From NCBI GenBank assembly GCA_017601345.1, contig JAFNIT010000010.1:1-41018 (forward strand): 41,018 nt of DNA, given 5' to 3'. A model generated the notes under the pieces. The model had not been told where the DNA came from, ran no database searches, and worked only from the letters and a program-made list of their open reading frames with translations. Of this stretch, positions 2,742 to 40,950 are shown in pieces. A program made the position numbers and the translations under genes. Positions within the stretch are counted from its first letter, which is position 1; every line of letters starts with the position of its first letter. Origin of the DNA: Candidatus Brockarchaeota archaeon (GTDB taxonomy: Archaea; Thermoproteota; EX4484-205; JAAOZP01).

Positions 2742-2743
2742 AC

Positions 2744-2773
2744 CCTCTATTTCTTTCTATTTTTTATTTCTAC
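2744..2773 (+). terminator. T-rich termination region after the binding protein gene
   Basis: Directly after the TAA stop comes a pyrimidine-rich stretch with TTTCTTTC and a run of six T. Archaeal RNA polymerase terminates at such U-rich tracts without needing a hairpin, so this probably ends the transporter transcript. Confidence 0.45.
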
Positions 2774-2881
2774 TAATTTGTAAAATTAAAGTCTATACTC
2801 AACGCTTCTTAGCAATGAGAAGCATATTGAGCAGGTATTTTGAAAAACTTTTAAAAGAATCGGTTTTAAAGGTAAAAAGCG

Positions 2882-3706
2882 ATGCTTAACGCGGAGAGCC
2901 TGCTATTAATAAATCTGTTAATTAACGACCTTGCCTACTCCGGTATTCTTAAAGTGATTTTATTAAGTATTGTTCAAGGGATAACAGAATGGTTTCCGGT
3001 TTCTAGTACAGGACACTTGGTTTTCCTTCGAGAGCTACTCAATATTAGGGTTTCAGCAGCATTCGATATACTGCTTCACGCAGGTTCTTTGACTGGAGTA
3101 GTCTTAGTTACTAGAAAAGATTTACATGCCTTACTCAAAGCACTTCTAAAACTTGATTTTTCAAGTAGTGAGGGAAAAATGCTAGTTTATTTAATACTGG
3201 GAACAACCCCCATCGTAACGATAAGTCTATTACTGAAAGAGTTCATCGACGCGATGTTTACAAACCTCTTTTCCACAGGAGTGGCAATGTTAATCAGTGG
3301 AGCGATCCTATACTTGACAAAAAACTATAAGCCCAGGAGCAGATTAAATGCTTCGAATGCACTACTGATAGGAGTCTCCCAGGCACTGGCAATTATACCT
3401 GGTGTTTCCAGGATGGGGATAACAGTTTCAACAGCACTAATCTCTGGTTTGGAATACGACGAGGCCTATAGGTTTTCACTATTACTATCTGTTTTAAGCA
3501 TTACAGGCGGGTGTATTTTCAAACTCAGCGATTTTTGTTTTGAAAATGATCTTATCTTCATCCTTCTCGGCATTGCGATCACTGCTGCAGTAAGTGTTTT
3601 CACCTTAAAACTCTTGAAGAGACAGATGATTAAGCAAAATTTTTACAAGTTTGCATATTATTGCTTACTCGTTGGGGGAGTGATCCTAATCTTAAGCGTT
3701 TTTTAG
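2882..3706 (+). CDS. uppP: Undecaprenyl-diphosphatase family protein (UppP/BacA)
   Basis: A 274-residue polytopic membrane phosphatase. The first signature GITEWFPVSSTGHL (about residues 38-51) carries the glutamate and serines of the BacA active site. The second signature PGVSRMGITVS (about 173-183) carries the catalytic arginine region. The enzyme dephosphorylates polyprenyl diphosphate carriers at the membrane; in an archaeon this would recycle the lipid carrier used for glycan assembly and protein glycosylation. The length matches the family (about 265-280). An AT-rich TTTTAAA element lies just upstream, and the gene appears to be transcribed alone. Confident on family; the natural lipid substrate in this organism is inferred. 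Confidence 0.9.
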   Translation: MLNAESLLLINLLINDLAYSGILKVILLSIVQGITEWFPVSSTGHLVFLRELLNIRVSAAFDILLHAGSLTGVVLVTRKDLHALLKALLKLDFSSSEGKMLVYLILGTTPIVTISLLLKEFIDAMFTNLFSTGVAMLISGAILYLTKNYKPRSRLNASNALLIGVSQALAIIPGVSRMGITVSTALISGLEYDEAYRFSLLLSVLSITGGCIFKLSDFCFENDLIFILLGIAITAAVSVFTLKLLKRQMIKQNFYKFAYYCLLVGGVILILSVF

Positions 3707-28205: not shown

Positions 28206-29672
28206 ATGACACAAGAGAAAGAGGGGATTTCAAAAGTAATGCAGAAAATAGTTGAAGAGGGAGTTAAATTCATAGACCTACAATTCACAGACGTCCCCGG
28301 ACGTTTACAGCACATTACACTACCAGCAATAAGGTTTAAGAGCAGTTATTTCATAGAGGGCGTTCCCAAACTCGACGGCTCCTCCATTAGAGGATTCGTA
28401 GAAATTTTCGAATCAGACCTCGTTTTAAAACCAGACTCTTCTACTTTTGCCATAATTCCTTGGTCGAGCCCCGAGAATAGGGCTGCAAGGCTTCTATGCG
28501 ACGTCTATAAGGGATACGGTGGTGGAAGGCTTTTAAAAGACCCGAGGTATGTTGCTCAAAAAGCTGAAGAATATGCGTTGGAAGAAGGATTCCATTCCTA
28601 TTGGGGGCCTGAATTAGAGTTTTTTGTTTTCAGGAAAGTTACTTGGGACGTTTTAAACCCCTACAGAGGCCAGTCCTATAGCATAGAGTCTCCGGAAGCA
28701 GCATGGTCTTCTGGAGAAGGATATCCGATCAGGTTTAAAGAAGGCTATTTCCCGGTTCCACCGCACGATACTTTAATGGAGTACCGTTCTACAATCACAA
28801 GGATAATGGAGGATTATTTTGGAGTAGCGTGTGAAGCTCATCATCATGAAGTTGCTACAGCAGGCCAGTGTGAAATAGACATCGTTAAAGATAAGCTTGT
28901 TAAAACGGCTGATAGTATTATGACCTTGAAGTATGTTATTAAGAACACTGCTATTCAGCAGGGAATGGTTGCAACGATGATGCCGAAGCCAATATTTGGA
29001 GACAATGCGAGCGGAATGCACGTGCATGTAAGCCTCTGGGGGGCGAACCCGTCTTCGGCAAGGCTTAAAGAGGAAAAGCTTGTGAACCTATTTTACGATG
29101 CTGAAGACGAATATGCAGAGCTAAGCCAGCTCGGAAGATACTTCGTGGGAGGCCTGCTTGAGCACAGTAGAGCGCTCACTGCAATAACGAACCCTACTAC
29201 GAACTCTTACAGGAGGCTTATACCGGGATATGAGGCACCGGTATTCGTAGCTTGGAGTAGGAGCAACAGGTCTGCGAACATTAGAATCCCGGTCTACCAG
29301 AAGGGAGCCGCTAGTGCTGAAAGCAAGAGGGTAGAATATAGAACTCCAGACCCATCTTGCAACCCTTACCTTTGCTTCGCTGCGATAATGAGCGCAGGAT
29401 TAGACGGTATAAAGAAGAAAATCGATCCTGGAGACCCCATTGACGAAAACATTTACCATTTAACCATTGAAAGAAGAAAGCAACTAGGCATAAAGGAGCT
29501 TCCGGGAAGCCTTAAAGAGGCTGTTGAATGTTTGAAGAGCGACAGCGAGTTTCTGAAGCCAGTTTTCTCAAGCGAGCTTTTAGATAGCATTATAGAAAAT
29601 GCTTTAAACGAATACTTGCAGGTTTCTGCAAGACCGCATCCCTATGAATTTTACTTATACTTCGACATCTAG
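28206..29672 (+). CDS. glnA: Glutamine synthetase, type I
   Basis: A 488-residue ammonium-assimilating enzyme (glutamate + NH3 + ATP to glutamine). The beta-grasp N-terminus has FTDVPGRLQ; GSSIRGF precedes the catalytic domain, which has the metal-binding GPELEFFVF, the ammonium pocket region GQCEID and HHHEVATAGQ, MHVHVSLW, and NPTTNSYRRLIPGYEAP, then RSANIRIP. The length is slightly above the usual ~440-470 of the alpha type. I do not see the typical adenylylation loop motif of bacterial beta-type enzymes. Preceded by a strong TATA box. It is the last chromosomal gene before the integrase. Confidence 0.95.
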   Translation: MTQEKEGISKVMQKIVEEGVKFIDLQFTDVPGRLQHITLPAIRFKSSYFIEGVPKLDGSSIRGFVEIFESDLVLKPDSSTFAIIPWSSPENRAARLLCDVYKGYGGGRLLKDPRYVAQKAEEYALEEGFHSYWGPELEFFVFRKVTWDVLNPYRGQSYSIESPEAAWSSGEGYPIRFKEGYFPVPPHDTLMEYRSTITRIMEDYFGVACEAHHHEVATAGQCEIDIVKDKLVKTADSIMTLKYVIKNTAIQQGMVATMMPKPIFGDNASGMHVHVSLWGANPSSARLKEEKLVNLFYDAEDEYAELSQLGRYFVGGLLEHSRALTAITNPTTNSYRRLIPGYEAPVFVAWSRSNRSANIRIPVYQKGAASAESKRVEYRTPDPSCNPYLCFAAIMSAGLDGIKKKIDPGDPIDENIYHLTIERRKQLGIKELPGSLKEAVECLKSDSEFLKPVFSSELLDSIIENALNEYLQVSARPHPYEFYLYFDI

Positions 29673-29699
29673 AAGTTTTCTTTGACATCGTATAAAAAA

Positions 29700-29707
29700 T
29701 TTAAATA
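29700..29707 (+). promoter_or_regulatory. TATA-like box of the integrase gene
   Basis: TTTAAATA lies 31 nt before the GTG at 29731, which fits a leaderless archaeal transcript. The element thus has its own promoter, only 28 bp after the glnA stop. Confidence 0.5.
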
Positions 29708-29730
29708 GCGCTTCCCAGCCTGTTTATGGC

Positions 29731-31020
29731 GTGAAGATATACGATAAAGAGGCTTTCGAGTGGAGGAGGAAGCATAGGGCTGAGATAGAGGCCCAGGCCT
29801 CAGCCTTCTTGGATAAGGCTTATCGCAGGTCTAGGAGCCTCAAGTCTAGGGAGGCTAAGCTCACAGCATTATGCGTTTTCTGCGGCTTCCTGAGGAAGCT
29901 TCCACAGGAGGCCATTAGCGAGATAAAATCCAACAGGGCTGACCCCTATGAGATGCTGGATGGCTTCGTCACGTACTTGACTAAGATAGGCGTTGCTCCG
30001 CACAGCATCAAGGATTACGTTTCGGGCGTGAAGAAGTGGCTTCTGTTTAATGAGATTAACGTTGAGAGCGCTAAGCTTAGTGAAAGGGTTGAATTACCTA
30101 GGCAGTATGCCATAACGAGGGATGCTGCGCCAACTAGGGAGGAGCTTAGAAGGATCGTGATGAGCACAAACCTGAGGGGTAAGGCTCTGATCCTCGTGCT
30201 CGCCTCAAGCGGTATGAGGATTGGTGAAGCGTTAAGCCTGAGGGTTAAGGATATTGATTTCAACAAGCACCCTGTAACGATACACATAAGGGCTGAAGTA
30301 GCTAAGGACAGGCAAGCAAGGTTTTGCTTCATAAGCGACGAGGCTGCAGGCGTTTTAAAAGCCTATCTTGCTGAGAGGATTAACGAGCCTGAGAGCCATG
30401 TTTTCCAGGGGAGGCATCAAGGCGTTAAGCCTGATGGAACGAAGTACCTGAGGGGTAAATGGAGGAATGAGCCGATGACTTATTGGAACGCAGACTTCAT
30501 ATTCACAAACGCTTTAAGGAAGGCAGGCCTCTACAAGAAGGATGAACACGGTAGGGATATCCTGCATATTCACTCTCTCAGAAAATTCTTCTTCACTCAA
30601 CTGCTTCCAGTCTTGGGGAGAGAAGTTGTGGAGGCTTTGATGGGGCATAGGCAGTTCCTCGACTCAGCGTACAGGAGGTTCACGCTCGAGCAGCTTGGAG
30701 AATACTATTTGAAGGGAATGAGGAATTTAACCATCTTAGGCGAGCAGGTTGGAGAAGAAAGGGTTAGGGAGGAGTTTAGGAGGCAGTTATTGCTGGTGGC
30801 AGGGTTTAAGCCTGAAGAAATAAACAAGATGGACATTTTAAGCATCGGGGACGAGGAGTTTCAGGAGATGGTTAGGAGGAGGCTGCTGGGAAACATGGTT
30901 AAAAACGGTGCGACCCAAAGGGTTGTCGACGTGAACGAGCTGGAGAGCTTCCTAGCCCAAGGGTGGGAGTTCGTGGCGGCGCTGCCGAACAACAAGGCCA
31001 TAATAAGGGTTTCGGCCTAA
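29731..31020 (+). CDS. Tyrosine recombinase/integrase
   Basis: A 429-residue site-specific recombinase. An N-terminal SAM-like DNA-binding domain (about 20-125) is followed by the catalytic domain: arginine I in SSGMRIGEALSLR, the HxxR box in HSLRKFFF, LMGHRQ, and the catalytic tyrosine in SAYRRFT. The ~110 C-terminal residues after the tyrosine (EQVGEERVREE and onward to FVAALPNNKAIIRVSA) form an extra helical and beta unit. The gene is uninterrupted, so it is not of the SSV type that splits on integration. Start GTG at 29731; an ATG five bases before ends at once. It would catalyse integration and excision at a short attachment site. Confidence 0.9.
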   Translation: MKIYDKEAFEWRRKHRAEIEAQASAFLDKAYRRSRSLKSREAKLTALCVFCGFLRKLPQEAISEIKSNRADPYEMLDGFVTYLTKIGVAPHSIKDYVSGVKKWLLFNEINVESAKLSERVELPRQYAITRDAAPTREELRRIVMSTNLRGKALILVLASSGMRIGEALSLRVKDIDFNKHPVTIHIRAEVAKDRQARFCFISDEAAGVLKAYLAERINEPESHVFQGRHQGVKPDGTKYLRGKWRNEPMTYWNADFIFTNALRKAGLYKKDEHGRDILHIHSLRKFFFTQLLPVLGREVVEALMGHRQFLDSAYRRFTLEQLGEYYLKGMRNLTILGEQVGEERVREEFRRQLLLVAGFKPEEINKMDILSIGDEEFQEMVRRRLLGNMVKNGATQRVVDVNELESFLAQGWEFVAALPNNKAIIRVSA

Positions 31021-31071: not shown

Positions 31072-33354
31072 ATGGCTTTGGGCTTGCAAGGCTTAGGCAA
31101 AGAGCTTTATCCAAAGACAACTCTTGAGCTTGGAGCTGAGAAGGAAATAGCTGATGCCTATGCTAAGGCTTTTGCTCTCTCTGTTTTGAATGATGTTAAG
31201 GTTGAGGAAAGAGAAGGTTTCTTGAGGAGAAAAAAGGTTGAGGTTGAGAATTACGAAGATATTGTTGAAAGGCTGGAAAGCTACGCTAGGCAGTATAGCC
31301 AAGCGATTACTCCTTTTCAGCTCTACAATGCTTTGAAGGATTTGGAGAAAGAAGCTGAAGGAGAGCTGAAGGAGAAGATAAGAGCTTTGAGGAAAGAAGT
31401 TGACAGAAGAGAAGGGATAAGTAGAAAGAAAGCTGTTGGAGCTGCTTTGGCTGCCATTATGCTAGGTACAACTGCCTCCGCTTTGTATTATCAGTTCGTT
31501 TTTAAGCCTGAGCAAGAGAAGAAGCCTTACAAGCAGGCTGGCCTTACTGATGAAGAGGCTAATAATTTTATCAATAAATATCCTAACCAGAATGGCAATT
31601 CAACCTGGGTCAGCTTTGCTAAATATTGGGCTAAGAATTCAAGCTTAGCAGATTTAGCTTTTCAAAATTTTAAGGATTTGAATAAAACTTTAAGCTACTT
31701 GAGCTTTTCAAACAATCAGCAATTCTTAGCTAAAGCCTTGAATGAGCTTGGAAGTAGCTCTTACGATTTCGTTAAGTGTGTTAAGGATGGTAAGCTGAAT
31801 GAAGATTTGGCCTTACAGATGTTTGATTCAAACTTCTTCAAGGATTTGGCTAGAAGGGATTTGGAGATTGCTAAAAGCGTTGTTAAAGTTGCAAGCTTGA
31901 ATAGCTCGTCTATACCTAAGAACTTAGCTTACCAAGTCTTAGACCAAATTGAAAGGGATAATAGGGTTGAAGATAAGCTCAACGTTGCGAGAAATGCTTT
32001 CAGCTTGTTAAATGAGCTTAATATTCATGATTTGAAGAATAAAGGTAGCGTTTACATACCTGGAAATTATTCTTTAGCTTTAGCTCAAGGCTTGCCTAAG
32101 CACTCTGGTAGCGAGATAAAAAGATTGTTTAATGCGAGCGAGAATTGCAGCGACATAGTTGACTTCGAGCCGATAATAATTAAAGATGTGACTGGGCAAA
32201 CGATAAAAATCGAGAGCAAGAATTTAGCTAGAGACTATTGGCTTATAGCAGAGCTTTTGAAGAACAGGCCTGAAATAGCTTCGCAGCATGAGAAATTTGA
32301 GTGGATAAATCGCATGGTTCAGCAAATAGCTTGGAACATTTTTGAAGATAGGTATGGACCGAGCTTTTACGATGAAAAGGGCTATAGGCCAGATGATGGA
32401 GAAGTTTGGAAAGTGATTTTGGGATTTCACGATTACATGGATTCCCTGCCATCTAAGCTTCAGAGAGATAACATCCCTATAGCCTTCCCATACTGGGACT
32501 CTGAGCTGTTAAGGCAAGCTATAGGTGACAAAGCGAACAGGACAATAGCTTTATTTTATTTAGCCAACTTGCCCGCTATGAGTGTAGATAAAGCTAAGAG
32601 CGCTGAGCTCGATAGGCTAATTGAAGAAGGAAAGATATCAAGCAAGGATTACTGGAAGCTCTTCGAAGAGAAAGTAGTAGTAAAAGGGATTGAAGGGATG
32701 AAGAAGTTTATAGAGCAGATGCCGGGAGAATATGAAGAGATAGCTAACGGATTCAAAGATGCTAACCAAAAGGAAAATGCACTAATGTGGTTCACTGGCT
32801 GGTTAGCAGATAGGGGAAATCATGGCCTAGCCAACACAGTCAGTCAATTCATTGGTGTTAAATATCCGGAAGGTATTCAGCCACCAACCATGGACGAAAT
32901 GAAAAGGATAATTGAAGACACAAACGTTCATGGCATAACACAAGCTCTCAAAAAATATTGGAATCCTTGGGACTTCATCAAGTTCATATACGGCTATGAA
33001 AGCCTTGTATGTGGTAGGTGGGGAGGAGAATGGGGGATGTATACACATGGTTTAACAACAGCTTACAAAGCATTTGGAATACCGTTTATATGGATTGGTA
33101 TGAACCATGATCCCTATCTCGTTAATCAAGGCGCACCCGCAGGAGAATGGGCCGTACCAATACCAGATGCTATTTTAACACAGCTTAAATCAGCGTTCTC
33201 TTCTCAAAGGATAGTAAATAGTTATGGTAATGGTATTGGTTTGATGTCTTGCATAGACGGATTGGTTAAAGATAGTAATGGAGTGGAGTGGTTAGGAATA
33301 GCGATCAGGGAGCATAATACAGTACCAGATATTGTTTATCTTTGGAAAAAGTGA
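31072..33354 (+). CDS. Large membrane-anchored protein of unknown function
   Basis: A 760-residue protein I do not recognise. Residues 1-115 are highly charged helices (KVEEREGFLRRKK, LEKEAEGELKEKIRALRKEV), then one hydrophobic segment (about 120-143) preceded by RRKK-type basic residues, then about 615 mainly helical residues with several possible N-glycosylation sequons, predicted to lie outside the cell. The last ~150 residues contain GEWGMYTHGLTTAYKAFGIP, which resembles the transglutaminase-like core with tryptophan where the catalytic cysteine would be; this is tentative. It could be a surface or virion-like protein of the element. Start ATG at 31072; its stop overlaps the convergent cysteine-rich frame by 19 bp. 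Confidence 0.6.
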   Translation: MALGLQGLGKELYPKTTLELGAEKEIADAYAKAFALSVLNDVKVEEREGFLRRKKVEVENYEDIVERLESYARQYSQAITPFQLYNALKDLEKEAEGELKEKIRALRKEVDRREGISRKKAVGAALAAIMLGTTASALYYQFVFKPEQEKKPYKQAGLTDEEANNFINKYPNQNGNSTWVSFAKYWAKNSSLADLAFQNFKDLNKTLSYLSFSNNQQFLAKALNELGSSSYDFVKCVKDGKLNEDLALQMFDSNFFKDLARRDLEIAKSVVKVASLNSSSIPKNLAYQVLDQIERDNRVEDKLNVARNAFSLLNELNIHDLKNKGSVYIPGNYSLALAQGLPKHSGSEIKRLFNASENCSDIVDFEPIIIKDVTGQTIKIESKNLARDYWLIAELLKNRPEIASQHEKFEWINRMVQQIAWNIFEDRYGPSFYDEKGYRPDDGEVWKVILGFHDYMDSLPSKLQRDNIPIAFPYWDSELLRQAIGDKANRTIALFYLANLPAMSVDKAKSAELDRLIEEGKISSKDYWKLFEEKVVVKGIEGMKKFIEQMPGEYEEIANGFKDANQKENALMWFTGWLADRGNHGLANTVSQFIGVKYPEGIQPPTMDEMKRIIEDTNVHGITQALKKYWNPWDFIKFIYGYESLVCGRWGGEWGMYTHGLTTAYKAFGIPFIWIGMNHDPYLVNQGAPAGEWAVPIPDAILTQLKSAFSSQRIVNSYGNGIGLMSCIDGLVKDSNGVEWLGIAIREHNTVPDIVYLWKK

Positions 33355-34160
33355 GAGAAGAAATTCAAGACTAATTCAAAAACACTTTGGCTTGAAGTTC
33401 TCTGTGTTTCGTCTTTAACATTCCATCCTGGCGGGTCGCAAAGATATTTTGGATTTGGCGAATAAATGCCTCTACCAACACATTTATATAGGTTTGCTGG
33501 GTTTGGATCTATAGTAGTAGAATTTACACAGCAAGCTCCGTCCACACAATCTTTTTTAGTATCTGCACAAGGTGGCCATTTACAAGTGTAATCATAAGGT
33601 CCACCTATGCATCCACTTCCTTGAGGGGGAGGACTACAACATTTTCCAACCACAAGGTTATCAGTCCCGCCAGGAGGACAGTCTGAATCAGTTAAGCATT
33701 CAACACATCTTCCATCATAACAGCAGCCTGCTTGCCCGTTTTTGCAATAGCAAGCACCAAGTGAAGTTTTCAAATCTGCTCCTGAGATGTAATACTCTAG
33801 AAGTGTAGATGCTCCCAAGCAGTAATCTGTCTTCTCCTCCTCACATCTTTGCGTGGTTGTGTTGAAGCCTCTTGCTGTTCCTTTAACATTGTAATTTATC
33901 CCGCCATCAGAATCGCTTGCCTCGCAGCACGAGCAATCAAAAGTGCATCTCCCATTGTTTCCACAAGTATAGCCAGGCCATTTTTCATCGCAACTAGCAT
34001 CAGCACCGCAAGCCTGCTCGCATGCACCATCTCCAGCTTTACTGTTTGGGCATAGGTCTGCAACTCCTTGCGTTGTGCTTTCTCTCCTATTCACAGTGCA
34101 ACCTCCTGTTTCTCCTTCTCCACTAGTTATTAGGCAATAGCCATCATCAGCCAAATGCAA
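33336..34160 (-). CDS. Cysteine-rich protein or fragment without a clear start
   Basis: A 274-residue frame with about 36 cysteines, many as CC or CxC in small disulfide-like repeats (CSCCEAS, GCCYDGRC, KCCSPPP, ACCVNST), glycine and proline rich, typical of extracellular domains. There is no signal peptide and no ATG near the beginning: the listed start is a TTG at 34160 and the frame stays open to about 34184, just inside the preceding gene. It resembles the interior of a surface adhesin rather than a complete protein. It may be a truncated gene, a silent cassette or part of a frameshifted larger gene. Domain family not recognised. Confidence 0.45.
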   Translation of the reverse strand: MHLADDGYCLITSGEGETGGCTVNRRESTTQGVADLCPNSKAGDGACEQACGADASCDEKWPGYTCGNNGRCTFDCSCCEASDSDGGINYNVKGTARGFNTTTQRCEEEKTDYCLGASTLLEYYISGADLKTSLGACYCKNGQAGCCYDGRCVECLTDSDCPPGGTDNLVVGKCCSPPPQGSGCIGGPYDYTCKWPPCADTKKDCVDGACCVNSTTIDPNPANLYKCVGRGIYSPNPKYLCDPPGWNVKDETQRTSSQSVFELVLNFFSHFFQR

Positions 34161-34593: not shown

Positions 34594-35505
34594 TCACACC
34601 TCTGCCTTGCCCTCATCTTCATATTCAGCGTCCACTTCGCCCTCAAGCGTAGAATCAATTTCAACAGATTCTATGTCTGTTTCCTCCAGAGCCTGCTCGA
34701 CCAAGCCCTCTATTTCCGTATTGCTCATCTCCAGAGCTTGGTCAGCAAGTTCCTCGGCTTTAACCTCGGTTTGCTCTAGACTTTCATTGAACAGCTCACC
34801 CTCAAGTCGACTTAAGATTTCCTCAGCCTCCTCTTGGCTTAGCTCCTCCACATTTGACACATATTCCTCAACAGGTTGCTCATTCAGCCTCTCTGATAGG
34901 TTTGTTTCCTCATTGGAGTTTTCCACCTCCTTTTTATACTCATCCTCAAGCCTGTTGATCTCAGTATGTTGAATCCTTAGCAGCTCTTCATATGCAGCCT
35001 TGCCCTCCTGGCTATCTATGCCTTTCTCCCCAATTATTTCAAGCAATCTATCCTGAGGATCCTGCTCAAACTCAATGCTTTCTTCTTTCAGATTTTCCTT
35101 ACTTTTCTCCTCCTCTTTTTTCTCAGCCTGAGGCTCCTTCAACCCTTCGCTTAAGGCCCTCCAGCTCATGAAGTCAACATACCTCTCATACATCCTGTTC
35201 ATAATTTCCCTTCTAAACTCCTCGCTCCAATGTTCGGGAAAGGTTGGGGGATAACGCTCGAAAAACTCCTCCCTGCTGAGCACCTTTTGCCCTATCTCAA
35301 GCTTACCCTCATTACCCTTAGAGTAACTTGGCTCTGGGCTATATGACGCCTGCTCAGGCTCAACCTCATACCCACGCCTCAAATAGGGCGATCTATATCT
35401 ACCAGGCCTAAGCCTGTAGGGGCTGTATCTTAAACTCTTGTATGGATTGTGATGCTTATACTTCGAACCATACCTACCCCTATACTTGACCAACTTCCTC
35501 CTCAC
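34594..35505 (-). CDS. Charge-segregated protein next to the HerA-type ATPase
   Basis: A 303-residue protein with a very basic, tyrosine/arginine-rich N-terminus (repeats of YR, RY, YRSPY up to about residue 50), a short structured middle (LSREEFFERYPPTFPEHWSEEF, about 76-98) and an extremely acidic, helical C-terminal half (EEEKSKE, EEILSRLEGEL, DQALEMSN). Such charge segregation is common in proteins that hold DNA with one end and a partner with the other. The GTG start overlaps the end of the ATPase gene by 26 bp, so it is very likely made with it. Function unknown; it is not a relaxase or nuclease as far as I can see. Confidence 0.6.
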   Translation of the reverse strand: MRRKLVKYRGRYGSKYKHHNPYKSLRYSPYRLRPGRYRSPYLRRGYEVEPEQASYSPEPSYSKGNEGKLEIGQKVLSREEFFERYPPTFPEHWSEEFRREIMNRMYERYVDFMSWRALSEGLKEPQAEKKEEEKSKENLKEESIEFEQDPQDRLLEIIGEKGIDSQEGKAAYEELLRIQHTEINRLEDEYKKEVENSNEETNLSERLNEQPVEEYVSNVEELSQEEAEEILSRLEGELFNESLEQTEVKAEELADQALEMSNTEIEGLVEQALEETDIESVEIDSTLEGEVDAEYEDEGKAEV

Positions 35506-37564
35506 CAGGCTTTTCTCCAGCTTTCCTCCAAGAAGAGCTTGAAACCTGTTTTCTCCTCATAACCGGCTTTTCTTCGAGGAGATTTGCCTCGTTGTAAAGT
35601 AGCTTCGCATATTGGCCTAGTGTGTAAACCTTAACCCTTGGCTTCCAAGGGCTTATTTCCGACATAGCAATCTCAAGGGAGCCGAGGTCTCTAACAACTA
35701 TTACAAGCTCATCCAGTTCCCCCAATTCTTCAAACTTCTCTCCAGCCCTTATTCCCTTAAGCTGTACTTCAACCCCTATTTTCCTACCGTTTTTAAGGAG
35801 AAGCAGGTCAACCCTTTTCCCGTTCACGAGTTTTTCAATTTGAACCTGGTAGCCTGCCCTGATGGCGAGGTTCCTTAGGAACACTATGTGGAGCCTATGC
35901 TCGAAGCCTCCTCCTGAGTGCGTAATGTAGCTCCAGAAGCGCGTATCATATCCACGTCTTCGAAGCAGCGAGAGAGCGAAGGACGTTGGAATCAAATACT
36001 TGACGGGCCTATAATTTCCGAGCACAACTTCGCTTTCCTTAAGCAGCTCTTTCCCCAATAACTCGGCTTTAGCCTGCTCTAGTCTTCTCCATGAGAGCTT
36101 AAGCTCTTTATTTCTTGTTGAAAGCTGCCTGAAAGGATGCTGATTCACGTCAAGCAGCAAGCTCCAAGCATCCTCAGAAATCTCAAATATTTCCCTCTCT
36201 TGCAGGTACTGCTTCTTCTGAAGAGATTGTCCGAAAATCGATTCAAGCCTTTCCTCAACCTCTTCATCGCTCACGTCTTTATCAGCCTGAAACGGTGAGC
36301 TTTCCATCAAGAAAGGCTCTGTGTATATGTCTGACATTCTAACTATCCACTGACCACGCTTCAGCTTATGAATGCACTCTTTAGTCTCTTCATCAAGACC
36401 CATAGCATTAGAAACAGCCTCTATATCGTTTCCGTTTGAAAGGTTCCCAACTATCTTAACAAGAGTGTTAGCGTGAACAGCCTCCATCATGAAGCTTGGT
36501 GTTTGTGAGGTTAGTATTAGAGAAGTACCGAAGTCTCTGAACTGAGTTGGGAAAATGGATATCATAGGAATACCCATCTCCTGTGCTGTTTCACGATACT
36601 CCTTGCTCCTGTCGAAAATCCTGTGAGCCTCATCAATTATAATCACATGTCTCAATCTCTCTCCTCTTTGAGCATTGTAAAGCCTGTAGAAATATATCCA
36701 GGAGAGCAGGACTTCTATAAGCCAGTTTGCTTCAGCAGGCCTTAAGCCAGAGAGCTCCACCACAACAGGAAGCTCAAGAAGCTTCTCGATCCGAATACCC
36801 TCCTCAACAGAAAAGTTCTCCCTGAATATGGAGACAATTGCCCTAACTCTATTCTCAACAACATCGTGATACTCCGACCTCCTCCTTGTTGTTTCTTCAG
36901 TGTTGACAATTGAGTTGAAAAGGTCTCGTATCGTAGGCTTCTCTTTCTCTCTAAGCCTTTCAAGATGCTCAAGCATGTAGTTCGAGCTTGCGACAAACCA
37001 GCCGAAGGAGTAAGCACATATTTGAGAGAAGTTCGCCCACCATTCTTCCCTACTCATTCCAGGAGGAGCTCTAAGAGGATTCCACGCAAACCTTTTCCAA
37101 GGAATCACAACAAGCTTCTCACTTTTCCTTAACAAAGCCCTTCCATCATTCTTCAAGTCGAAGAGGATGAACGGAATATTTTTCTCAATAAGCTGCGAGA
37201 TCAAATTATAAAGCAGAGTTGACTTGCCGTGACCTGTTTGAGCATAGATGGCAACATGCCTCACAAGCTCAGATTCATCAAGCTTGAATTCTCCAACTGC
37301 TTTATCACCCAACATGATCTCACCTATAGCGATTCCGTTGAACTCCTGCTCTAGAGGAGCGGGTAGCACAGGCCTCTCAGAGTAAACAAGGCTTGGAAGA
37401 CCAAGCTCGATTAAAGACTCAAGCTCCTCTCTGACTTCTTTCCTCTCCTGACCCTCTGAAAGGAAGAAAATGTTCAGCAAGCCTTCGAGAGCGCTCTTGC
37501 TTAAAACACCTGTTTTCCCAGCAAGCTGCTTCAGCTCTTCCACCCACTCCATCTCCTCACTCAT
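35480..37564 (-). CDS. HerA/VirB4-type ATPase fused to a PD-(D/E)XK-like nuclease domain
   Basis: A 694-residue hexameric-type DNA translocase. After an N-terminal helical and beta-barrel-like region (about 1-95) come Walker A YAQTGHGKSTLL (about 107-118), FDLKNDGRALL, and Walker B HVIIIDEAHRIFD (about 306-318) with SQTP as sensor; this is the FtsK-HerA superfamily. The C-terminal region (about 540-660) has FEHRLH, KRVDLLLL and IGVEVQLK, a D...ExQ pattern of restriction-endonuclease-fold enzymes. The ATG at 37564 has GAGGGA upstream; a TTG at 37570 overlapping the previous stop is possible. It could pump DNA for conjugation, packaging or defence. NurA, the usual partner, is absent. Confidence 0.8.
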   Translation of the reverse strand: MSEEMEWVEELKQLAGKTGVLSKSALEGLLNIFFLSEGQERKEVREELESLIELGLPSLVYSERPVLPAPLEQEFNGIAIGEIMLGDKAVGEFKLDESELVRHVAIYAQTGHGKSTLLYNLISQLIEKNIPFILFDLKNDGRALLRKSEKLVVIPWKRFAWNPLRAPPGMSREEWWANFSQICAYSFGWFVASSNYMLEHLERLREKEKPTIRDLFNSIVNTEETTRRRSEYHDVVENRVRAIVSIFRENFSVEEGIRIEKLLELPVVVELSGLRPAEANWLIEVLLSWIYFYRLYNAQRGERLRHVIIIDEAHRIFDRSKEYRETAQEMGIPMISIFPTQFRDFGTSLILTSQTPSFMMEAVHANTLVKIVGNLSNGNDIEAVSNAMGLDEETKECIHKLKRGQWIVRMSDIYTEPFLMESSPFQADKDVSDEEVEERLESIFGQSLQKKQYLQEREIFEISEDAWSLLLDVNQHPFRQLSTRNKELKLSWRRLEQAKAELLGKELLKESEVVLGNYRPVKYLIPTSFALSLLRRRGYDTRFWSYITHSGGGFEHRLHIVFLRNLAIRAGYQVQIEKLVNGKRVDLLLLKNGRKIGVEVQLKGIRAGEKFEELGELDELVIVVRDLGSLEIAMSEISPWKPRVKVYTLGQYAKLLYNEANLLEEKPVMRRKQVSSSSWRKAGEKPGEEEVGQV

Positions 37565-37566
37565 CT

Positions 37567-37761
37567 TCAATCCCTCGACAAAATCTTGGCAGCAGCTATG
37601 CCAAGGAAGAAGATAAGAAGGCCTATGAATGCTAGCTTCAACTCAACCTCAACACCGTATGCTGACAAAAGCTTCAGTATCCAGGCTGAGGAAGCTAAGC
37701 CGAAGATCGAAAGCCCGAGCAGTATTATTAGCGTTAAAACCGAGCTTAAGCTTCTACCCAT
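37567..37761 (-). CDS. Small two-helix membrane protein
   Basis: A 64-residue protein with two transmembrane helices (about 7-30 and 38-57) and a short basic N-terminus (MGRS). The ATG at 37761 is preceded by GGGGG at good spacing and overlaps the end of the zinc-finger gene; its own stop touches the ATPase start. No cysteines. A holin-like, channel-like or membrane-docking role is possible. The tight placement next to the HerA-type ATPase suggests that it anchors or opens the membrane for it. Confidence 0.6.
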   Translation of the reverse strand: MGRSLSSVLTLIILLGLSIFGLASSAWILKLLSAYGVEVELKLAFIGLLIFFLGIAAAKILSRD

Positions 37762-38392
37762 TTTCAAACCCCCAGCCAAGCTTATCTTTAAGCATTCTCA
37801 CATCAGCCTCGCCCTCAAACACCTTAGTATAAGCAGATATTGCCTCAAGCCCTTTATCAGCCACGTAAATTCGGGAAAATATTGAAAGGCCCTTCTCACC
37901 AATAAGCTCAAGGCTCTGAAGCTCCTCTAAGCATTCTTCAACATCCTCCCTCTTCACCTGAACGATTTGCGATATTTCTCTTAAGCTCTCCATCCCATTA
38001 GCAAGAGCGAGCAAAACCTTGAAGCTTCTCTTGCTCAAAGGCAACTGCTGCTTCAAGCAGTCCAAGCAAACCTTTTGCCCTGAAAAGTGAATTGCGCAAT
38101 TCGAGCAAAGCTTCTTCCCGCAATTCTTACATATTGAAAATCTTTCGGCCAAGGCTTCGCCACACACATCGCAAACCGGTATACGAATAACCTTCTCTAT
38201 TCCCCCTGAGCGGTTGGTTGAAAAGCTTCTTCCCCCTAAGCTTCCTTGAAAATCAGGAATCTTCCTCTCCTCCATTATCAAGCTTGAATTCTGGTTCAGC
38301 CTATTCTCAAGCTCGGTAAGCCTGCTGTTAAACCTAGAAAGACTCTGGCTTATTTCCCTTAACGTCCTGCGAATATCTTCTTCCCTTCTCAT
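37754..38392 (-). CDS. FYVE/RING-like zinc protein with coiled coil and winged helix
   Basis: A 212-residue protein with three parts. Residues about 3-40 are a predicted coiled coil (RREEDIRRTLREISQSLSR). Residues 74-112 hold eight cysteines as C-x2-C-x10-C-x2-C-x4-C-x2-C-x9-C-x2-C, the cross-brace spacing of FYVE/RING/treble-clef zinc domains (CKNCGKKLCSNC is very FYVE-like). Residues about 120-200 form a winged helix (REISQIVQVKREDVEECLEEL). I chose the ATG at 38392, which overlaps the upstream stop (ATGA); a longer version starting MCSIC is possible. In an operon with UBL, E2 and E1, a RING-like zinc protein is a candidate E3 or substrate adaptor; this is inference. Confidence 0.65.
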   Translation of the reverse strand: MRREEDIRRTLREISQSLSRFNSRLTELENRLNQNSSLIMEERKIPDFQGSLGGRSFSTNRSGGIEKVIRIPVCDVCGEALAERFSICKNCGKKLCSNCAIHFSGQKVCLDCLKQQLPLSKRSFKVLLALANGMESLREISQIVQVKREDVEECLEELQSLELIGEKGLSIFSRIYVADKGLEAISAYTKVFEGEADVRMLKDKLGWGFENG

Positions 38393-38826
38393 CTCAAAAA
38401 CCTCCTCATAACAAATACTGCACATTCTACGCCTATGATTATCGGTAGAAGAAAAGGAGAGAGGAAGATTAGAGAGGGTATGAAGAGCAGGAGGAGCACG
38501 CTTCCCCCTTTAAAATCTCTGGTGAATTCTTCCACGGTTTCCCTGAAAGCATCAATACTCATTATCGCAACAGCTCCTATTATCCCGATGATAAGAGAAG
38601 CATAGGGGAAAGTGTTGTAAGCCCATAAGATCAGTAAAGCACTTATTGCAGCAGGCAGGATGAAAGAAGACAGAGCTGCTATTAACAAACCCTTAGAAAA
38701 CCTTGGAGCAATTCTAGCAGGCTGGGCGGGAACTTGAATAGGCCTTACGCTACTCCTCCTTCTGCTTCTTCTACCCAAATAGTTTATTAGCTCTTCATCG
38801 GGACGCGTTTCTCGCTCATGAGACAA
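38389..38826 (-). CDS. Four-helix membrane protein with an N-terminal DEELINY motif
   Basis: A 145-residue membrane protein. The cytoplasmic N-terminus has PDEELINYLGRRSRRR (about 9-24), then a basic proline-rich linker and about four hydrophobic helices (about 45-68, 76-95, 110-130 and the C-terminus). Its N-terminal motif is shared with the neighbouring 74-residue protein. The start is a TTG with GGTGA eight bases upstream. No enzyme motif. Likely part of a membrane complex with its neighbours. Confidence 0.6.
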   Translation of the reverse strand: MSHERETRPDEELINYLGRRSRRRSSVRPIQVPAQPARIAPRFSKGLLIAALSSFILPAAISALLILWAYNTFPYASLIIGIIGAVAIMSIDAFRETVEEFTRDFKGGSVLLLLFIPSLIFLSPFLLPIIIGVECAVFVMRRFLR

Positions 38827-38835
38827 TCCTGTCCT

Positions 38836-39060
38836 TCACCTCACGAAGAATGGAAAGAAGTGGGCAGACATGAACATCAAAACTATGAACAATAAGAAGA
38901 GCAGAAGGCTTCTAGGCATTCCAAGATCTTCTAAAAAGCTCTTTCTAGCATGAAAACTCCTGCGAACATTTCCGTCATAACCATTAACTGCTCTGCGGCG
39001 AGAAATATAATTTATCAATTCTTCATCTGAGTGCCTCTCATCCTTCCTCAACTTTTCCAC
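38836..39060 (-). CDS. Single-helix membrane protein sharing the DEELINY motif
   Basis: A 74-residue protein with the N-terminal motif SDEELINYISRRR (about 11-23), then a charged linker (RSFHARKSF) and one C-terminal hydrophobic helix (about 50-70). The GTG start lies inside the end of the JAB-E1 gene (13-bp overlap), so it is co-translated with the conjugation genes. The shared motif with the next gene suggests duplication of a docking segment. Confidence 0.6.
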   Translation of the reverse strand: MEKLRKDERHSDEELINYISRRRAVNGYDGNVRRSFHARKSFLEDLGMPRSLLLFLLFIVLMFMSAHFFPFFVR

Positions 39061-40367
39061 CTCTCGACCGAAAGTACTTCTTCCTCGCTTTTTGTCTCAA
39101 CTTTGTCATGCAGTTTTTCAGGGGAGCATGCTGGACAATTTGGGTTTACGTCTGCGTGAAGAACATCTATCTTACATTCCAAAGCATCGTAGCTTTGATA
39201 TTCAACTATTGGCATCACTCCAGTTATCAGCTTGATTATCTCCCACAAAGCCATGCCAGCTATCACATCGTTCAGCGAAGCTATTGCTGGCGCAACGGGT
39301 ATCTCAAGCTCATCTCCAAGCCCATATCTTTCAGCAAGCCTCTTCTTCCTCACGGGATCAATGGTTTCCCTGTCCAAATCAAGCTGTGTTACTGGATTAA
39401 CGCACTCGTAGCATGGTGTTTTTCCAGGAACAACTACTTGAACCGAGCCTCCCATCGAGCTGAGCTTACCCTCCTTAGAGTCTATCCCGGCTGCTGGAAA
39501 CACAGCAGGCTTTTTCAAACGCAAAGCAAGCCTGTTTCCGAATATTCTAGTGCTGAAGGTATCTGGGCCAACAACGAGCAGATCAGCCTGCTTATAGACT
39601 TCATCAGGCACTTCCTCAGCCCTAAGCGGGAAAGCTTCGACCTCAACGTCATCATAGTTAAACTCTATAAGGTTTTTAATCGACTCAGCCTTATTCCTTC
39701 CGCATAGGTTGGACGGTATAAATACTCTATTCCTATTATGCTCCTCCCATTTATCCGGGTCTATTAATATCAGCTTTCCTACTCCAAGGCTTGCAAGGTC
39801 AAAGGCTATCTTAGTGTTTCCTCCCCCAACTCCAATCATGGCTATTGTTGAAGAGGATATTAGCAGCTGACCCTCGATCCCAAAAGCCCTAACTTGCCTA
39901 TCAAACCTTCTCAAGTCAACAACTTGATATGGAGTTAGCTTAATTCCGTCTTCGTATCTGTAGAAGAAGAACCTACCGGAATTGTATACTCCAGAGAGCT
40001 GGTACGGATATATTTGAATCACCTTCATGTGCGTATCGACATCTCCAGAACTGAGGGTATTCAGAGGATGACTATGCACGGTAGCAAGCTGGGTCTTACC
40101 CTCCTTCTCCAGCTTTGAAAACTTCTCGGCCACAAACTCAGGCTTAACGCTCACATGCCCAAAGCTCCTTGCATCGTAATCTTGATCTGAGGGGATTAAA
40201 ATGTCGCTAACCAGAAGCTTTCCGTCTTTAGCTTTTCCGAAGAAAAAGACGACGCTTTCAAGCTCAGAAGCTCTTAAAGCTTTTTCAGCCTCCTCCATTA
40301 AATTTTTTGGAATCAAAATGCTGTTAATGCTTTGGTTTAAGCGTTGTCTAGGGAACTCCATTTTCAC
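39048..40367 (-). CDS. JAB (JAMM) protease-E1 (ThiF-like) fusion
   Basis: A 439-residue two-domain protein. The N-terminal JAMM domain (about 15-150) has a candidate catalytic glutamate (residue 37), then HSHP (98-101) and SSGD (106-109), the zinc ligands of a deubiquitinase-type metalloprotease. The E1/ThiF domain (about 153-420) has IGVGGGNTK (178-186, ATP loop), LIDPDKWEEHNRNR (201-214), a zinc pair of CxxC motifs (319/322 and 411/414) and typical VAPAIASLND. It should adenylate the UBL C-terminus and also cleave the UBL. No cysteine stands out as the E1 thiolester residue (222 and 398 are the only spare ones). GTG start at 40367 overlaps the E2 stop. Confidence 0.82.
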   Translation of the reverse strand: MKMEFPRQRLNQSINSILIPKNLMEEAEKALRASELESVVFFFGKAKDGKLLVSDILIPSDQDYDARSFGHVSVKPEFVAEKFSKLEKEGKTQLATVHSHPLNTLSSGDVDTHMKVIQIYPYQLSGVYNSGRFFFYRYEDGIKLTPYQVVDLRRFDRQVRAFGIEGQLLISSSTIAMIGVGGGNTKIAFDLASLGVGKLILIDPDKWEEHNRNRVFIPSNLCGRNKAESIKNLIEFNYDDVEVEAFPLRAEEVPDEVYKQADLLVVGPDTFSTRIFGNRLALRLKKPAVFPAAGIDSKEGKLSSMGGSVQVVVPGKTPCYECVNPVTQLDLDRETIDPVRKKRLAERYGLGDELEIPVAPAIASLNDVIAGMALWEIIKLITGVMPIVEYQSYDALECKIDVLHADVNPNCPACSPEKLHDKVETKSEEEVLSVERWKS

Positions 40368-40738
40368 TCATTTAACCCCCTCAAGTAGTCGATGATCATC
40401 AGAACATAATCTACAAGAGTATTATTGCTGCTCCAGTTGACTTGGTGACAGAGCTTGACCCATCCTCTTTCAAGCATGTAATCTTCAGTAAGGCTTTCGG
40501 CTAAGTGATTGCTTCTATTACCATTAACGCGAAGCTCCCTGTCAACGTAAGTCTCAGGAGCTTGATAATCAGAGTTTATTTTTATCAGTAAAGGGGTGAA
40601 AGGCTTATTGAACTGCCTTGGCAGTGGAAAGCGCGGTATCAAGATATACTTGTAGGAATCTGAAAGCACGGCATCCGGAAAGGCTCGCCTTATCTCTTCG
40701 AATCCCAAAATCACTTTATCTTCCCTCATCTCTTTCAC
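40364..40738 (-). CDS. E2-like (UBC-fold) protein, Prok-E2_E type
   Basis: A 124-residue protein with a UBC-like layout: helix (GFEEIRRAF), strands YILIPRFPLP and FTPLLIKINSDYQAPETYV, then WVKLCHQVNWSSNNTLVDYVL. The sole cysteine (97) is followed by histidine 98 and tryptophan 102; this C-H-x3-W region and the following helices match the prokaryotic E2 family E. Cysteine 97 is the candidate thioester residue that accepts the UBL from the E1. It overlaps both neighbours by four bases, start and stop. The GTG at 40738 is listed; an ATG at 40729, with GGTGA five bases upstream, may be the true start (121 aa). Confidence 0.7.
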   Translation of the reverse strand: MKEMREDKVILGFEEIRRAFPDAVLSDSYKYILIPRFPLPRQFNKPFTPLLIKINSDYQAPETYVDRELRVNGNRSNHLAESLTEDYMLERGWVKLCHQVNWSSNNTLVDYVLMIIDYLRGLNE

Positions 40739-40950
40739 CAGTATTGGTACCTCGGGCGGACGGCAATCTCCTCTCCGTCCCTCACTTTATTGCCAATCCT
40801 CTCATTATCAGCAATTATCTGATTCCTTGCGTTCGTAAGAATTGAATCATTAGAAACGCCAAGGGCCTGCTTCACCTGAGCTCCTGTTATATTTTCGTCG
40901 AACGTTAAAACGCGATCATCTCCCGCCCTTTTTATCCTAATACTCCCCAT
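40735..40950 (-). CDS. Ubiquitin-like beta-grasp protein
   Basis: A 71-residue protein predicted to have the ubiquitin fold: strand SIRIKRAG, strand RVLTFD, helix GAQVKQALG, then the ILTNARNQI and GNKVRDGEEIAVRP strands. The GEEI segment before the last strand is typical of small beta-grasp proteins. Its C-terminus is PRYQYW, with no GG or single G, unusual for a modifier. The start is an ATG at 40950 with a perfect GGAGGTGAT nine bases upstream; a GTG at 40959 overlapping the previous stop is the alternative. It is the predicted substrate of the E1, E2 and JAB encoded downstream. Confidence 0.7.
   Translation of the reverse strand: MGSIRIKRAGDDRVLTFDENITGAQVKQALGVSNDSILTNARNQIIADNERIGNKVRDGEEIAVRPRYQYW

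What the first reader, a model, noticed from the sequence alone, without database searches (positions are those of the whole stretch)
37754..40950. Complete ubiquitin-like cascade (UBL, E2, JAB-E1, candidate RING/FYVE-like protein) on an archaeal mobile element
Seen: four adjacent minus-strand genes for a beta-grasp protein, a UBC-fold protein with one cysteine, a JAMM-E1 fusion, and (after two membrane genes) an eight-cysteine cross-brace zinc protein, with four-base overlaps at the UBL-E2 and E2-E1 junctions. Known: bacterial E1/E2/UBL/JAB clusters (Bil/Prok-E2 type and type II CBASS) are antiviral or modify conjugation targets, and Caldiarchaeum has a chromosomal Ub system with a RING. Inference: this is a distinct archaeal form with fused JAB-E1 on an integrated element. 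It may mark DNA-translocation or membrane partners, or act in defence or element competition.
Basis: partly seen in the sequence, partly recalled or inferred. Interest (0 to 1): 0.92.

Follow-up and report, generated by a model that had tools for sequence, protein, structure and literature searches.

The report
Archaeal ubiquitin-like tagging operon, cysteine type
A mobile element in an uncultured archaeon carries a small protein-tagging kit related to ubiquitin that belongs to a family (called Bub) known from bacteria, but its transfer protein has a cysteine where nearly all relatives have a serine, so the two can be compared to learn how this chemistry changes.

Summary
The three core genes are real and translationally coupled: a beta-grasp protein (40735-40950), a UBC-like protein (40364-40738) and a JAB-E1 fusion (39048-40367). 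They are not a new archaeal form: order, fusion and sequence place them in operon type 6e (Iyer 2006), now called Bub. Solved Citrobacter BubCD and BubB are the best profile matches. Bub loci also occur in 10 other sampled Thermoproteota genomes and on haloarchaeal plasmids; no paper I could search describes archaeal ones.

Two points go further. (1) 31 of 35 aligned BubB proteins have Ser at the E2 active-site position; the window and three haloarchaeal plasmids have Cys, in a W-x-K-x-C-(I)-H motif. (2) In these Cys loci bubCD tends to end in, or be followed by, a membrane segment. Thermoproteota Ser-type loci often neighbour TIR genes and CARF-wHTH regulators, pointing to conflict functions.

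The proposed RING/FYVE E3 is not supported: it is a zinc-ribbon/winged-helix protein absent from other Bub loci. The window also departs at the UBL C-terminus (Trp for Gly) and the E1 GxGGxG motif (Asn), so a damaged or altered system is not excluded.

The parts
40735..40950 (-). bubA-like gene: single beta-grasp protein, 71 aa, C-terminus RPRYQYW
   Evidence: GGAGG 8 nt before ATG; weak ThiS match; aligns with single-domain multiubiquitin proteins (PF14452) of other Bub loci, motif T-G-x-x-[IV] and with haloarchaeal Cys-type BubA. AF2 model uninformative (pLDDT 49).
40364..40738 (-). bubB-like gene: UBC/RWD-like protein, 124 aa, single Cys97 in W-V-K-L-C-H-Q-V-N-W
   Evidence: Prok-E2_E E=0.0076; profile of other BubB 24.2 bits vs 7.0 best of 2000 shuffles; low-confidence AF2 model (pLDDT 56) has order a-b-b-b-b-a and its highest-probability PDB match is Citrobacter BubB 9eae_C, prob 0.82, not significant by E-value.
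39048..40367 (-). bubCD-like gene: N-terminal JAB/JAMM domain fused to ThiF/E1 adenylation domain, 439 aa
   Evidence: ThiF 3.5e-34; profile including it finds Citrobacter BubCD at 1.2e-90 over JAB and E1; JAMM ligands, both CxxC pairs, D.D, N.NR, K and Asp269 retained, GxGGxG altered to GVGGGN.
38836..39060 (-). 74-aa protein with one C-terminal transmembrane segment, overlaps bubCD by 13 nt; N-terminal motif DEELINYISRR
   Evidence: hydropathy and overlap; membrane segments also follow or end bubCD in G037, G452, Salinigranum, Natrinema.
38389..38826 (-). 145-aa membrane protein, N-terminal motif DEELINYLGRR shared with the previous gene
   Evidence: no relatives in 40 other genomes.
37754..38392 (-). 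zinc-ribbon plus winged-helix protein (four CxxC), candidate regulator; probably not part of the conjugation machinery
   Evidence: weak DZR/zinc-ribbon and wHTH matches; no counterpart at other Bub loci; only weak partial matches in 40 other genomes.
37567..37779 (-). 70-aa membrane protein
   Evidence: ORF with hydrophobic stretches.
35480..37570 (-). HerA/CedD-like DNA-translocating ATPase with C-terminal nuclease-like domain, last large gene of the overlapping run
   Evidence: DUF87 5e-12, CedD 4e-19, weak PD-(D/E)XK; 4-nt overlap.
29731..31020 (+). tyrosine integrase next to glnA, marks the element
   Evidence: PF00589 1.4e-18; 97% identical integrase after glnA in same-genus G002.

Best explanation
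An archaeal Bub (type 6e) protein-conjugation module of a cysteine-type subfamily, carried by an integrative element and placed at the membrane. Proposed steps: the JAB domain trims or removes BubA; the E1 domain adenylates the BubA C-terminus; BubB, docked on BubCD, accepts BubA on Cys97 and hands it to a nearby amine or hydroxyl on a target; JAB can reverse this. The small membrane proteins encoded directly downstream anchor the reaction or receive the tag, so it is directed to the membrane, most likely in conflicts with other elements or viruses. Family membership and the membrane-gene neighbourhood are shown by sequence; adenylation, Cys97 chemistry, membrane targeting and a conflict role are inferred.
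For: Family: gene order A-B-CD and JAB-E1 fusion identical to bacterial plasmid loci annotated multiubiquitin, E2/UBC, ThiF and to operon 6e in PMC1779556; BubCD and BubB as best PDB profile hits. Cys type: Cys97 falls in the otherwise invariant Ser column; Cys also in Natribaculum, Salinigranum and Natrinema plasmids, 4 Cys vs 31 Ser. Membrane: TM genes after bubCD in window, G037, G452 and Natrinema; TM tail on Salinigranum BubCD. Conflict: TIR genes after bubCD in four Thermoproteota genomes and divergent CARF-wHTH regulators in five; many bacterial Bub operons carry DNA-damage regulators of immune operons (PMC13373217). Intact ORFs, coupled starts, retained JAMM and zinc ligands.
Against: Window BubA ends in Trp where 15 of 17 aligned relatives have Gly; its E1 has Asn at the last Gly of GxGGxG where 22 of 22 have Gly; it lies on the longest branch of the E1 tree (2.8 changes per site): activity may be lost or altered. 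Cys97 falls in the Ser column for most rows in 135 of 200 resampled alignments, so the exact register is not certain. The membrane proteins of different loci are not homologous by BLAST where compared. Bub has not been shown to protect against phage (PMC13373217).
Confidence: 0.5

Rival explanations
1. A decaying Bub operon: captured by the element and losing conjugation activity, with the UBL or JAB domain perhaps kept for a non-covalent role.
For: Unusual residues at two otherwise conserved positions (BubA C-terminal Gly, E1 GxGGxG) and the longest branch.
Against: Three intact overlapping ORFs, all JAMM and zinc ligands kept, E1 D.D/N.NR/K/D kept; the BubB Cys is shared with three plasmid systems whose BubA keeps a C-terminal FG.
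Confidence: 0.2
2. Element-internal regulation: the module modifies proteins of the element's own transfer or packaging apparatus (HerA/CedD-like ATPase and membrane proteins in the same operon), not invaders.
For: bubA to the HerA-like gene form one run with overlaps or gaps of at most 9 nt; a HerA-like ATPase lies near one other Bub locus, G550.
Against: Among the other Thermoproteota loci viewed such an ATPase was seen near only one, while TIR/CARF genes are commoner.
Confidence: 0.22
3. One reading: a full E1-E2-RING ubiquitylation cascade like Caldiarchaeum or Bil, with the zinc protein as E3.
For: Eight cysteines in four CxxC pairs in a nearby gene.
Against: Best matches are zinc ribbon and wHTH, not RING; gene absent from the other Bub loci viewed; no Cys at the usual E1 catalytic position.
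Confidence: 0.04

Closest known systems
Bub (bacterial ubiquitination-like) operons, type 6e of Iyer et al. 2006; Citrobacter BubA-BubB-BubCD structures 9ea4, 9ea5, 9ea8, 9eae, 9eav
   Same: Gene order UBL, RWD-like E2, JAB-E1 fusion; no catalytic Cys in the E1 linker; shortened E2 active-site loop; carried on mobile elements.
   Different: BubB has Cys instead of the invariant Ser; single-domain BubA without C-terminal Gly; no DUF6527 (BubE) gene; membrane genes follow; host is an archaeon.
Cys-type Bub loci on haloarchaeal plasmids (Natribaculum, Salinigranum, Natrinema; L114-L117, found here)
   Same: Cys in W/Y-x-K-x-C-I-H of BubB, similar single-domain BubA, membrane segment on or after BubCD in at least two of three.
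   Different: BubA keeps a C-terminal FG; Natribaculum E1 keeps GxGGxG; Natribaculum has two BubA and two BubB copies; window BubB lacks one residue after the Cys.
Bil (BilA-D) and type II CBASS Cap2/Cap3
   Same: Conjugation by E1/E2 relatives plus a JAB protease; conflict context.
   Different: JAB separate from E1 (Bil) or E2-E1 fused (CBASS), catalytic cysteines (general knowledge); no CD-NTase seen here.
Caldiarchaeum ubiquitin operon (PMC5654768)
   Same: Archaeal UBL, E1, E2 and JAMM genes together.
   Different: Separate JAMM and E1, RING E3, canonical E1/E2 cysteines (general knowledge of that system).

Membership tests
Bub / operon type 6e | JAB domain fused to the N-terminus of an E1-like domain | tested here: met
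Bub / operon type 6e | Gene order UBL - RWD/UBC-like - JAB-E1 | tested here: met
Bub / operon type 6e | UBL of the multiubiquitin type (PF14452) | tested here: inconclusive
   Window BubA only reaches ThiS E=0.053; aligns with PF14452 members and with haloarchaeal BubA
Bub / operon type 6e | E2-like protein of Prok-E2_E/BubB type | tested here: met
   PF14462 E=0.0076, below cut-off; BubB profile far above shuffles
Bub / operon type 6e | BubB without Cys at the active-site position, as described in 2006 | tested here: not met
   Cys97 at or next to the Ser column in the window, Cys also in three plasmid loci; hence filed as a Cys-type variant, not a standard member
Bub / operon type 6e | Metal-binding DUF6527 (BubE) gene | tested here: not met
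   No PF20137 match among the 10 genes scanned; also missing at several bacterial and archaeal loci, so not a strict requirement
Bub / operon type 6e | Conjugation activity by the Bub mechanism | not testable with these tools
   needs biochemistry; the mechanistic paper (Ye et al. 2026) was not held
Type II CBASS | CD-NTase gene and E2-E1 fusion | tested here: not met
   E1 fused to JAB, separate E2-like gene; no CD-NTase among neighbours scanned; contig ends 68 bp upstream of bubA
Bil | Separate JAB (BilC) and E1 (BilD) | tested here: not met
   single fused protein, only a weak BilC match 5e-4
Caldiarchaeum-type ubiquitin system | RING E3 in the operon | tested here: not met
   zinc protein matches zinc ribbon and wHTH, not RING
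Integrative element | Integrase and host-gene junction, both ends | tested here: inconclusive
   integrase after glnA, other end beyond the contig

The most novel reading that the evidence does not exclude
Within one ubiquitin-like family the E2 nucleophile exists in two natural states: Ser in nearly all members and Cys in an archaeal, membrane-linked branch found on a Thermoproteota element and haloarchaeal plasmids. The Cys branch would be either a relic or a re-invention of thioester-type ubiquitin transfer that works with a cysteine-free E1, and would tag membrane targets in conflicts between archaeal mobile elements.
Probability: 0.33. Interest if true: 0.82.

Novelty: new variant of a known kind. 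Interest (0 to 1): 0.65.

Why it matters
It extends the Bub family to archaea in several lineages, ties archaeal Bub loci to TIR and CARF genes (a testable hint of immune function, which bacterial work has not yet shown), and offers paired Ser- and Cys-type E2-like proteins for asking how ubiquitin transfer chemistry changed. Swapping Cys97 to Ser in the window protein, and Ser to Cys in Citrobacter BubB, would test this directly.

Tried and rejected
RING/FYVE E3: rejected. Relatives of the window E1 and of the HerA-like ATPase by peptide pattern in IMG/VR: none; one Bub locus in IMG/VR with another query, none with a third. Phage records: no Bub-type JAB-E1, only partial ThiF matches. My first idea that the BubB Cys is irrelevant (6e described as inactive) was dropped after the haloarchaeal Cys loci appeared. 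A frameshift at the BubA 3' end was considered: the +1 frame reads SARGTNTGERDEGR, but the in-frame stop overlaps the bubB start exactly, so there is no ground to prefer it. Archaea-specific loss of DUF6527 was rejected, since bacterial loci lack it too.
Full report
1. What is there. The window is the whole of contig 26 (41,018 bp) of a 1.18 Mb, 77% complete archaeal genome. On the minus strand at its right end lie a 71-aa beta-grasp-like gene (40735-40950), a 124-aa UBC-like gene (40364-40738) and a 439-aa JAB-E1 fusion gene (39048-40367). The two junctions are 4-base GTGA overlaps and the first gene starts 8 nt after GGAGG. The run continues through a 74-aa and a 145-aa membrane protein, a zinc-ribbon/winged-helix protein, a 70-aa membrane protein and a HerA/CedD-like ATPase, with overlaps or gaps of at most 9 nt. 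The contig ends 68 bp upstream of the first gene, so anything before it is unknown. A tyrosine integrase lies at 29731-31020 next to glnA.

2. Family. The E1 domain is clear (ThiF 3.5e-34). A related locus with the same order, UBL-E2-JAB/E1 followed by two membrane genes, was found in G037, where the E2 scores Prok-E2_E 8e-17 and the UBL matches Multi_ubiq below its cut-off. From there 347 plasmid records were reached, and bacterial loci are annotated multiubiquitin, E2/UBC, ThiF and often DUF6527. A profile of seven JAB-E1 proteins finds Citrobacter BubCD at 1.2e-90, and a profile of five E2-like proteins finds Citrobacter BubB at 5e-8 as the only significant hit. Iyer et al. 2006 (PMC1779556) described this as operon type 6e, with an RWD-like E2 that lacked the conserved cysteine, a JAB fused to the E1 and a metal-binding protein. 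PMC13373217 calls the family Bub, reports 544 Bub operons and says they have not been shown to protect against phage. Thus the JAB-E1 fusion is a hallmark of a known bacterial family, not a new archaeal form.

3. Is the window protein really BubB? Pfam alone is weak (0.0076). A profile of the other BubB proteins (bacteria and Thermoproteota) gives it 24.2 bits, the best of 2000 shuffles 7.0. A low-confidence model has the E2/RWD element order, and its highest-probability PDB match is Citrobacter BubB, with human UbcH7 chains next (no match is significant by E-value).

4. Distribution in archaea. A full JAB-E1 of this type occurs in 2 of 398 genomes sampled across the phylum (G000, G037), 9 of 300 in the class of G037, including G037, and 1 of 251 in another class. 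Haloarchaeal plasmids carry it in 12 of 13 records found with one query and in further Natribaculum, Salinigranum and Natrinema records. None of the papers I could search mentions Bub in archaea; two key Bub papers were not held, so prior mention is possible.

5. Serine versus cysteine. Across aligned BubB proteins one Ser is shared in (F/W)-S-(Y/W/R)-H...W-x-P, mostly six or seven residues before the Trp, which is where canonical E2s have C-L-x-x-L...W-x-P (general knowledge of the E2 fold). The window has Cys97 there: R-G-W-V-K-L-C-H-Q-V-N-W against R-Q-W-G-Q-F-S-Y-H-L-D-G-E-W in G037. In 200 alignments of random subsets, 135 put Cys97 in the Ser column for most rows. Independent support came from haloarchaeal plasmids: Natribaculum (P-G-Y-I-K-Y-C-I-H), Salinigranum (R-R-W-T-K-Y-C-I-H) and Natrinema (D-D-W-A-Q-H-C-I-H) also have Cys; the tally is 31 Ser and 4 Cys, all four Cys in archaea. 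I recall, unverified, that the Bub mechanism paper reports oxyester rather than thioester intermediates; if so, the Ser is the likely nucleophile and these four proteins would be thioester variants. That step is inference.

6. Departures that argue for caution. BubA of the window ends RPRYQYW, while 15 of 17 aligned relatives have Gly at that column and the haloarchaeal Cys-type BubA end in FG plus 0-8 residues; other bacterial BubA end in Ser or Ala as well. The E1 has GVGGGN where 22 of 22 relatives have a final Gly. The E1 is on the longest branch, with no well supported placement. On the other side, JAMM ligands, both CxxC pairs and the remaining E1 residues are kept, and all ORFs are intact.

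7. Membrane and conflict context. In window, G037 and one G452 locus small membrane proteins follow bubCD; Natrinema has a membrane protein overlapping bubCD by 4 nt and Salinigranum BubCD ends in a predicted TM segment, with a weaker hydrophobic tail in Natribaculum below my threshold. The membrane proteins are not recognisably homologous where compared, so this is a repeated neighbourhood, not a conserved gene. In other Thermoproteota loci the next gene is a TIR protein (PF13676 over cut-off in G566, G550, the second G452 locus, G676) and the divergent gene upstream is a CARF-wHTH regulator (PF19810/PF22665 in G560, G550, the second G452 locus, G616, G676). TIR effectors and CARF regulators are typical of prokaryotic immunity (general knowledge), which supports a conflict role for the family in archaea, though not directly for the window.

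8. The zinc protein. It has four CxxC pairs, weak matches to double zinc ribbons and winged helices, no meaningful PDB relative, no full-length relative in 40 related genomes and no counterpart at other Bub loci. A regulator is likelier than an E3.

9. Verdict. An archaeal Bub operon of a cysteine-type, probably membrane-directed variant on an integrative element: new variant of a known kind. Most likely mechanism: BubCD adenylates BubA, BubB Cys97 carries it to a membrane-associated target, JAB trims and reverses; conflict between elements or with viruses is the likeliest context. Shown: family, order, residues, neighbourhoods. Inferred: activity, chemistry, targets, role.

Noticed in passing
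L091, L093-L096, L099 (Thermoproteota Bub loci): Several Bub operons are followed by TIR-domain genes and preceded by divergent HFX_2341-type CARF-wHTH regulators; a candidate immune system in its own right.
   Followed up: partly
L114:2510-5797 (Natribaculum luteum plasmid): Cys-type Bub operon with two BubA and two BubB copies; the second BubB (2737-3171) seems to have neither Ser nor Cys at the active-site position.
   Followed up: partly
window 29657-31020 and L066:7723-8075: Integrase next to glnA; a decayed integrase copy elsewhere in the same genome shares homology that stops inside the glnA 3' end (about 29657), a candidate attachment site. Same-genus G002 has a 97% identical integrase after glnA at a contig edge (L065).
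   Followed up: partly
L067:10162-14351 (G004:C19): Related integrase followed by an 816-aa homologue of window 31072-33354 and a Cys-rich gene like window 33336-34160: a family of elements in this genus.
   Followed up: partly
window 38836-39060 and 38389-38826: Two different membrane proteins share the N-terminal motif DEELINY(I/L)(S/G)RR, perhaps a common docking tag.
   Followed up: no
window 35480-37570: HerA/CedD-like ATPase with a weak C-terminal PD-(D/E)XK nuclease match.
   Followed up: no
L032, L075, L077, L079 (bacterial plasmids): A phosphotransferase (APH-like) gene is inserted between bubCD and DUF6527 in single-domain Bub operons.
   Followed up: no
window 31072-33354: 760-aa protein with no family match, conserved next to the integrase in G004.
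   Followed up: no
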